Shown here: positions 32,748-33,863 of the stretch, in pieces | Layout of the letters: each line of letters starts with the position of its first letter | Numbering within the stretch: the first letter of the stretch is position 1 | NCBI RefSeq assembly: GCF_001746755.1 | Contig: NZ_MCGG01000008.1 | Span: 1-64,000, forward strand | DNA: 64,000 nt | Origin: Magnetovibrio blakemorei | GTDB taxonomy: Bacteria; Pseudomonadota; Alphaproteobacteria; Rhodospirillales; Magnetovibrionaceae | Direction: 5' to 3' | The notes under the pieces: model-generated | The model's database searches: none | What the model saw: only the letters and a program-made list of their open reading frames with translations | Told to the model about the DNA's origin: nothing | Program-made: the position numbers and the translations under genes

Positions 32748-33863
32748 TTAGGCCTGTGTCGGTGTGGTCGTGGGTGTCGGCGTCGCGACAGCCGCTGCTT
32801 TTTTCACGGCAGCTTTTCTCGCCGGAGCTTTTTTAGCAGGTGCCTTCTTAGCCGGAGCCTTTTTGGCCGCTGCTCTTTTAGCCGGAGCTTTTTTCGCAGG
32901 TGCTGCGGCGGCAGCTTGCAGCTTTTTGATGGTGTCGACCAAGCCGAACACAGCCTTCACGGACTTGTTGAAAAGGGCTTTTTCTTCGCGATCAAGCTTG
33001 ATTTCAACGATCCGCTCCACGCCCTTCGCCCCGATCACGACCGGAACGCCGACGTACATGTTCTTCACGCCGTATTCGCCTTTAAGGAACGCCGCGCACG
33101 GCAGCACGGCTTTTTTGTCTTTCAAGTAAGCTTCGGCCATTTTGATGCCCGCAGCGGCCGGTGCATAATAAGCCGAGCCGGTTTTCAGCAAGCCGACGAT
33201 TTCGGCACCGCCATCACGGGTGCGCTGTACGATCTCGTCGATTTTGGCCTTGGTAGTCCATTTCATGTCGATCAAATCGGTCACGGGAATGCCGCCGACA
33301 GTGGAATAGCGAGGCAACGGCACCATGCTGTCGCCATGACCGCCCAGAACAAACGCGGTCACGTCTTCGACGGACACGCCGAATTCTTCAGCCAGGAACA
33401 AACGCATGCGCGCACCGTCCAAAACACCGGCCATACCGACGACCATGTGCGGCGGCAAACCGGAAGCTTCGCGCAGCGCCCAAACCATCGCATCGAGCGG
33501 ATTGGTGATGCAGATCACAAAAGCTTTCGGTGCATATTTTTTGATGCCTTCGCCAACCTGCTTCATGACACCGACGTTGATGGACAACAAATCATCACGG
33601 CTCATGCCCGGCTTGCGCGCGATGCCTGCGGTGACGATAACCACGTCTGCACCCTTGATACCGGCGTAGCTTTTGGTGCCTTTGAGGTTGGAGTTGAAGC
33701 CTTCGATGGGGCCGGACTGGGCGATGTCGAGCGACTTGCCCTGGGGCACACCGTCCATGATGTCGAACATGACGATGTCGCCCAAGTCTTTGACTGCCGC
33801 CAAGTGTGCAAGGGTGCCGCCAATATTGCCTGCACCGATCAATGCGATTTTACTGCGTGCCAT
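32748..33863 (-). CDS. mdh: Malate dehydrogenase with histone-H1-like basic tail
   Basis: Residues 1 to about 316 form a complete LDH-type NAD malate dehydrogenase: NAD loop [12 protein letters not shown], the substrate-loop arginines near [17 protein letters not shown]-like sequence ([15 protein letters not shown]), and catalytic HGDSMVPL. The normal end ([11 protein letters not shown]) is then extended by 55 residues, about 317-371, made of [16 protein letters not shown] repeats and a Thr/Pro end. Such Lys/Ala/Pro repeats resemble histone H1-type nucleoid proteins. Other malate dehydrogenases are about 315-325 residues long. The enzyme oxidises malate to oxaloacetate and heads the TCA operon. 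The tail is in frame and followed by a single stop. Confidence 0.95.
32751..32915 (-). repeat. Imperfect repeats encoding the malate dehydrogenase tail
   Basis: About six imperfect units of roughly 15-18 bp, with the core GCCGGAGCTTTTTTAGC on the plus strand, encode the APAKK-type repeats. The variation between units shows it is not a recent slippage product. Confidence 0.6.

What the first reader, a model, noticed from the sequence alone, without database searches (positions are those of the whole stretch)
32751..32915. Malate dehydrogenase carrying a 55-residue histone-H1-like basic tail
The enzyme is complete through the usual C-terminus and then continues in frame with [10 protein letters not shown] repeats and a Thr/Pro end. 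Such Lys/Ala/Pro repeats are known in H1-type nucleoid proteins but are not part of the LDH/MDH family. It could tether a TCA enzyme to DNA, RNA or acidic surfaces, or be a recent repeat fusion. The DNA repeats are imperfect, so it is not a simple slippage product.
Basis: partly seen in the sequence, partly recalled or inferred. Interest (0 to 1): 0.65.

Follow-up and report, generated by a model that had tools for sequence, protein, structure and literature searches.

The report
Malate dehydrogenase with conserved polycationic tail
A central metabolic enzyme, malate dehydrogenase, carries a long positively charged histone-like tail in many related bacteria, whose sequence keeps changing while its charge is kept, which suggests that the enzyme is held on ribosomes, DNA or another negatively charged surface in the cell; this has not been tested at the bench.

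Summary
In detail: residues 317-371 of the Mdh at 32748..33863 (-) are an in-frame Lys/Ala/Pro tail beyond a complete LDH-like malate dehydrogenase. It is not a recent fusion or assembly error: all 6 genus members read carry a tail, and 53 of 114 full-length Mdhs read from the order (sample biased towards tails) have at least 15 extra residues (median 48, up to 164). The tails hardly align between genera, yet all 53 are net positive (+3 to +79), built from PAKKA, RGRKP or AGKARA units. Between close species they are under purifying selection, weaker than in the core. In five genus genomes, Mdh and propionyl-CoA carboxylase are the only metabolic enzymes among 13 recognised types of PAKKA carrier; 6 of the other 11 act on DNA or ribosomes. 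Best reading: a disordered polycation that tethers the enzyme reversibly to nucleic-acid assemblies, ribosomes or nucleoid (inferred, not shown). A basic Mdh core and an acidic APAEEA tail on bS16 go with the Mdh tail across species, but neither association survives correction for ancestry. The tail type is known; none of the papers listed by my searches reports it on a TCA-cycle enzyme.

The parts
32748..33863 (-). mdh: LDH-like malate dehydrogenase, 371 aa, with C-terminal polycationic extension
32751..32915 (-). the tail, residues 317-371: [10 protein letters not shown] units, then a Thr/Pro end; 14 K+R and 0 D+E in residues 315-371
   Evidence: weak match to HC2 (PF07382, 21.1 bits, cut-off 40)
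32916..33863 (-). catalytic core, residues 1-316; net charge +6 over residues 1-314 (K+R minus D+E)
32790..32904 (.). imperfect tandem repeat in the tail DNA (period 30, with overlapping period-15 rows)
31524..32693 (-). sucC, next gene downstream of mdh; no basic tail
   Evidence: name by eye; a sucC start lies downstream of mdh in 29 of 30 loci
26276..31522 (-). sucD, odhA (sucA) and odhB (sucB); none ends in a Lys/Ala/Pro tail
   Evidence: translations; names by eye
52742..53197 (-). rpsP (bS16) with an acidic Ala/Glu tail ending [20 protein letters not shown], the opposite in charge to the Mdh tail; a lead only, no link shown
   Evidence: name by eye

Best explanation
The tail is an intrinsically disordered polycation, maintained for its charge rather than its exact sequence. 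Each Mdh chain gains about +14 in this species, and the enzyme is expected to be a tetramer (recalled for LDH-like Mdh, not tested), so four tails would give an avid but reversible hold on polyanions. Most likely it holds the enzyme on nucleic-acid assemblies: ribosomes and mRNA first, the nucleoid second. It would thereby slow and localise a soluble TCA enzyme. Shown here: presence of the tail across the genus and many families, conservation of charge, constraint at protein level, and the kinds of proteins that carry such tails in the same genomes. Inferred: the disorder, the binding, the target and the benefit.
For: 0 of 53 tails of at least 15 aa are neutral or negative; pooled composition K 35%, A 31%, P 9%, R 5%, D+E 2%. 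The same charge is reached with different letters: PAKKA in the window genus, RGRKP in G007, AGKARA in G047 and G083; R/(K+R) rises with GC3 (rho 0.35, p 0.009) while charge density does not (rho 0.05, p 0.74) (not corrected for ancestry). pN/pS in tails is 0.21 against 0.07 in cores over 17 overlapping pairs; in four disjoint same-genus pairs with equal-length tails, which avoid alignment bias, it is 0.17 (39.5 synonymous, 19.5 non-synonymous differences; p 1e-10). In five genus genomes 13 carrier types were recognised: 6 act on DNA or ribosomes (H1-like HhH, TopA, HU, UvrA, bL21, trigger factor), 2 are enzymes (Mdh, PccA), 5 are others. The whole Mdh chain has net charge +12 to +90 in all 53 tail bearers; in E. 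[quoted passage not shown] PAKKA motifs bind DNA in MLDS and Lys-to-Glu changes abolish it (PMC5504291).
Against: No binding or localisation data exist. Tails vary from 15 to 164 aa and are absent or under 15 aa in 61 of 114 Mdhs, even inside the family (G006, G009, G011, G013). The tree needs at least 16 changes of state, so the function is dispensable in some lineages. Two of the four equal-length pairs show weak constraint on their own (0.42 and 0.71, on 11 and 6 differences). Core charge goes with the tail (+7 against -3, p 2e-10) but not after correcting for ancestry (r 0.07, p 0.41). The Thr/Pro end (about residues 359-371) of the window tail is not basic. Five of 13 carrier types in the genus are sensor, membrane or unknown proteins without an evident nucleic-acid role. 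The disorder was not tested: the AlphaFold model was too poor.
Confidence: 0.5

Rival explanations
1. The tail is a nearly neutral low-complexity extension. Lys/Ala/Pro codon repeats expand and are tolerated at the exposed C-terminus; only acidic or hydrophobic changes are purged.
For: Length varies from 15 to 164 aa with many short or lost cases; PAKKA patterns outside mdh are somewhat commoner in tail bearers (median 4 against 2, p 0.006, not corrected for ancestry); constraint is weaker than in the core and weak in two of four equal-length pairs.
Against: Net positive in 53 of 53; purifying selection in pooled equal-length pairs; non-PAKKA basic tails exist (G007, G047, G083); 7 of 48 tail-bearing genomes have no strict PAKKA pattern elsewhere, and 19 of 57 tail-less ones have 5 or more; mixed synonymous codons speak against recent slippage.
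Confidence: 0.2
2. Charge-paired assembly: the basic tail binds an acidic protein partner. Candidates are the acidic APAEEA tail of ribosomal protein bS16 (which would also bring Mdh to the ribosome) or acidic SucC in a TCA metabolon.
For: bS16 tail net charge is -5 or lower in 35 of 39 Mdh-tail genomes against 8 of 30 without; SucC is more acidic in tail bearers (median -13 in 50 tail bearers against -8 in 48 others, over the first 250 aa); mdh and sucC are neighbours.
Against: The bS16 association is gone after correcting for ancestry (r -0.13, p 0.27) and charge sizes do not track each other among tail bearers (rho -0.16, p 0.35); G034, G117, G031 and G026 have very acidic bS16 without an Mdh tail of 15 or more. 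The SucC difference was not corrected for ancestry.
Confidence: 0.13
3. Tether to chromosomal DNA in particular: PAKKA units bind DNA as in MLDS, PhaF or mycobacterial HU, placing Mdh on the nucleoid.
For: MLDS PAKKA motifs bind DNA without sequence specificity (PMC5504291); PhaF's histone-like C-terminus binds DNA and is unfolded without it (PMC9049629); AT-hook-like RGRKP repeats in the G007 tail (AT-hook motif recalled); H1-like HhH proteins with the same repeats in the genome.
Against: +25 GFP in E. coli bound ribosomes and did not co-localise with DNA (PMC5726854); ribosome-linked carrier types (bL21, trigger factor, and S1 in G102) are nearly as many as DNA-linked ones (H1-like, TopA, HU, UvrA).
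Confidence: 0.15
4. Binding to polyphosphate, storage granules or acidic membrane lipids.
For: Related basic tails act on PHA granules and lipid droplets, though there as the DNA-binding part.
Against: No phasin domain in Pfam; the tail is low in hydrophobic residues other than Ala. Not otherwise tested.
Confidence: 0.07

Closest known systems
LDH-like bacterial malate dehydrogenase (TIGR01763/NF004863; e.g. 3gvh, 4ros)
   Same: whole core, residues 1-316
   Different: the profiles end at about residue 316, and the 60 solved relatives shown align no further than residue 318; no tail
MLDS of Rhodococcus jostii (PMC5504291, passages seen)
   Same: C-terminal PAKKA motifs appended to a protein with another job; DNA binding depends on Lys
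   Different: carrier is a lipid-droplet protein, not an enzyme
PhaF of Pseudomonas putida (PMC9049629, passages seen)
   Same: unfolded histone-like C-terminal domain on a carbon-metabolism protein
   Different: phasin with a granule-binding helix and leucine zipper
HU with PAKKA extensions, e.g. C-terminal in Actinobacteria (PMC5683647, passages seen)
   Same: Lys-rich repeats, almost no Asp/Glu
   Different: carrier is itself a DNA-binding protein
Histone H1-like HC2 (PF07382)
   Same: composition and repeat style; tail scores 21.1 bits
   Different: below the gathering score of 40; there it is the whole protein (recalled)

Membership tests
Bacterial malate dehydrogenase TIGR01763 | whole-protein score above 351.85 bits | tested here: met
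   413.2 bits over residues 3-310
Bacterial malate dehydrogenase TIGR01763 | Mdh rather than Ldh activity | not testable with these tools
   the Ldh model TIGR01771 scores below its cut-off (228.3 against 303.55)
Histone H1-like HC2 (PF07382) | gathering score 40 | tested here: not met
   21.1 bits on residues 313-358
PAKKA-tailed nucleic-acid tethers (MLDS, PhaF, HU types) | repeated PAKKA-type units, nearly no acidic residues | tested here: met
   14 K+R, 0 D+E in residues 315-371
PAKKA-tailed nucleic-acid tethers (MLDS, PhaF, HU types) | binds nucleic acid through the tail | not testable with these tools
   needs a binding assay
Phasin-type granule tethers (PhaF) | phasin/granule-binding domain | tested here: not met
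   Pfam hits are Ldh_1_N and Ldh_1_C plus four weak hits below their gathering scores

The most novel reading that the evidence does not exclude
In this order of Alphaproteobacteria a TCA-cycle dehydrogenase, together with propionyl-CoA carboxylase through an N-terminal tail in the window genus, is anchored to ribosomes by a charge-coded disordered tail. Mirror-image low-complexity tails (APAKKA on enzymes and chaperone, APAEEA on ribosomal bS16) form an electrostatic scheme that couples central carbon metabolism to translation.
Probability: 0.08. Interest if true: 0.88.

Novelty: new variant of a known kind. Interest (0 to 1): 0.56.

Why it matters
In E. coli, cytosolic proteins are mostly negative and positive proteins are slowed by sticking to ribosomes (PMC5726854). 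Here a housekeeping enzyme carries a strong polycation across many families of an order, with its charge preserved and its letters rewritten. That gives a ready natural comparison (tailed, short-tailed and tail-less Mdh in sister genera) to test whether tethering an enzyme to nucleic acid or ribosomes has a metabolic benefit.

Tried and rejected
Recent fusion or assembly error: rejected, 6 of 6 genus members carry a tail.

Genome-wide basic drift: SucC of tail bearers is more acidic, not more basic, so the basic Mdh core is not a general shift as far as this one control shows. Co-evolution of core charge with the tail: strong in raw data but not independent of ancestry (independent contrasts p 0.41; only 4 independent pairs on well-supported branches, with no signal), so not claimed. 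bS16 charge mirror: raw Fisher p 1.4e-7, contrasts p 0.27; kept as a lead only. One search failed to parse 12 of 70 loci, so one search repeated the count with a better method; 1 of 70 (G119) was dropped there because I had no Mdh row for it.

The one PhaM paper opened (PMC3556143, word search) does not hold the word PAKKA, so PhaM is not used as support.

Sampling caveats. Of the 198 order genomes, 105 were read to the C-terminus, chosen mostly by rank in the list and by family, which over-represents tails; 13 further rows come from less complete relatives. Of 118 Mdh rows, 4 with truncated N-termini (G010, G016, G037, G162) were left out of the 114 (two of them are used in pair counts). The class loci were the 29 best-scoring after the window out of 133 genomes with a match; 4 of 29 could not be parsed, and a few of the 25 kept have only approximate starts. 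pN/pS from gapped tails is biased low by alignment and its pairs reuse species. One search pooled only three equal-length pairs (0.26); the recount found five same-genus pairs, of which the four disjoint ones over 80% identical are pooled (0.17); the fifth (G096/G162) gives 0.32. Genus PAKKA carriers were named by eye except those scanned; one hit (G003 C52) looked like a chance reading frame and one (G002 C85) is a fragment at a contig end. The strict pattern misses related tails: 19 of 48 tail-bearing Mdhs do not contain it.

Full report
What is there. The ORF 32748..33863 on the minus strand encodes 371 residues. Residues 1-316 are a complete malate dehydrogenase of the LDH-like bacterial type: 462 bits to NF004863 and 413 bits to TIGR01763, both above cut-off; the best 60 of 177 solved relatives end between residues 300 and 318 of the query. 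The remaining 55 residues, 32751-32915, are [10 protein letters not shown] units and a Thr/Pro end. In Pfam they give only a sub-threshold match to the H1-like protein HC2 (21.1 bits, cut-off 40). The DNA repeat is imperfect (72% matches) and Lys, Ala and Pro use mixed codons.

It is old and widespread. All 6 genus members read carry a tail (18-59 residues beyond core position 314). In an order-wide search 198 of 198 genomes had a match to Mdh. I read 118 Mdh C-termini: 105 of those 198 genomes plus 13 less complete relatives, chosen with a bias to high scorers. Of 114 full-length rows, 53 have at least 15 residues beyond the core (median 48, range 15-164). Members of the class outside the order also have some: of 25 class rows parsed, 7 have 15 or more (G260 with 95). 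On a tree of 139 cores the tail state needs at least 16 changes, against a mean of 45 when shuffled, so it is clustered on the tree, with repeated loss, shortening or gain; the direction cannot be told, and starred branches alone force only 4 changes.

Charge is kept, sequence is not. Pooled over 53 tails the composition is K 35%, A 31%, P 9%, R 5%, with D and E together 2%, and none of the 53 has net charge of zero or less. Different lineages use different units: PAKKA in the window genus, RGRKP in G007, AGKARA in G047 and G083, and a 164-residue Lys/Ala tail with 81 K+R in G022. Arg share rises with GC3 while charge density does not. Across 17 partly overlapping species pairs pN/pS is 0.21 in tails and 0.07 in cores. 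Four disjoint same-genus pairs with equal-length tails, which avoid the alignment bias, give 0.17 (39.5 synonymous against 19.5 non-synonymous differences, p 1e-10; single pairs 0.00, 0.12, 0.42 and 0.71). The tail is therefore a constrained protein feature, though less so than the enzyme.

Company. A strict DNA pattern for KK-A-[A/P]-x-KK finds 22 places in the window's genome and none for the reversed control. They lie in Mdh, a biotin carboxylase with the PCC_BT domain (PccA; N-terminal tail), trigger factor, bL21, an H1-like protein with a helix-hairpin-helix domain, a DUF2934 protein and a helix-hairpin-helix protein with a probable membrane segment. Four more genus genomes draw on the same set, without DUF2934, plus TopA, HU, UvrA, a GAF/PAS sensor, an RND-type transporter reading frame and one unknown protein. 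That makes 13 recognised types: 2 enzymes, 6 DNA or ribosome proteins and 5 others. Mdh is a carrier in 5 of 5. An N-terminal basic extension of PccA is present in 6 of 6 genus members and in G007, though an internal ATG in the genus could be the true start. In the distant G102 the carriers that I could read are S1, bL21, TopA, trigger factor, PntA, an H1-like protein and Mdh; one of its loci gave no convincing gene. In the window the neighbours sucC, sucD, odhA, odhB and lpd have no such tail.

How it probably works. In E. [quoted passage not shown] and +25 GFP binds ribosomes rather than DNA (PMC5726854: outline with abstract, and sections 10, 12 and 18 read). The same paper warns that a disordered positive protein need not bind ribosomes well. 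PAKKA motifs of MLDS bind DNA through Lys (PMC5504291, passages); PhaF's histone-like tail binds DNA (PMC9049629, passages); Lys-rich PAKKA extensions occur on HU (PMC5683647, passages). All 53 tailed Mdhs have whole-chain net charge +12 to +90. I therefore favour a reversible tether to nucleic-acid assemblies, ribosomes being at least as likely as DNA. This last step is inference.

Results that did not hold up. Mdh cores are more basic in tail bearers (median +7 against -3), and SucC goes the other way; but independent contrasts give r 0.07, p 0.41, so it is a clade effect. Ribosomal bS16 in the window (52742..53197) has an acidic APAEEA tail, and strongly acidic bS16 tails go with Mdh tails (35 of 39 against 8 of 30), yet again not after correction (p 0.27). 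The AlphaFold model is too poor to use.

Novelty. Searches for malate dehydrogenase with lysine-rich, histone-like, C-terminal-extension or moonlighting terms, for lysine-rich tails in general and for PAKKA with nucleoid or PhaM listed no paper on a basic tail of a bacterial Mdh. I saw only the listings, which for searches were 10 of 106 and 10 of 742 papers, and the library lacks most subscription papers. The tail type is known; I found no report of this carrier or of its spread.

Noticed in passing
window 52742..53197 (-), tail 52745-52933: bS16 has an acidic Ala/Glu tail with APAEEA repeats, the charge mirror of APAKKA; in 43 of 69 genomes of the order read, the bS16 tail has net charge -5 or lower, reaching 175 residues in G034.
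   Followed up: partly
L222 938-3151 (+), genome G000 contig 12: Propionyl-CoA carboxylase alpha chain with an N-terminal PAKKA extension of about 70 residues; basic N-terminal extensions in all 6 genus members and in G007. An internal ATG could be the true start.
   Followed up: partly
L045 (G007): A GroES-like protein (by eye) whose C-terminus ends in [21 protein letters not shown].
   Followed up: no
L220 2419-3684 (-) (G102): NAD(P) transhydrogenase alpha subunit (PntA) with a PAKKA tail followed by an acidic end.
   Followed up: no
L226 1469-3136 (-), genome G000 contig 25: A protein with a helix-hairpin-helix domain, a Lys/Ala/Pro stretch, a probable membrane segment (by eye) and a Gly/Tyr/Pro-rich end that matches sulphur globule protein (PF17228); look-alikes in G003, G004 and G005.
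   Followed up: no
L254 1000-1722 (-) (G005): A 241-residue protein without a Pfam match above cut-off, with a Lys/Ala-rich N-terminal half and a CxxC motif (CAFC) further on.
   Followed up: no
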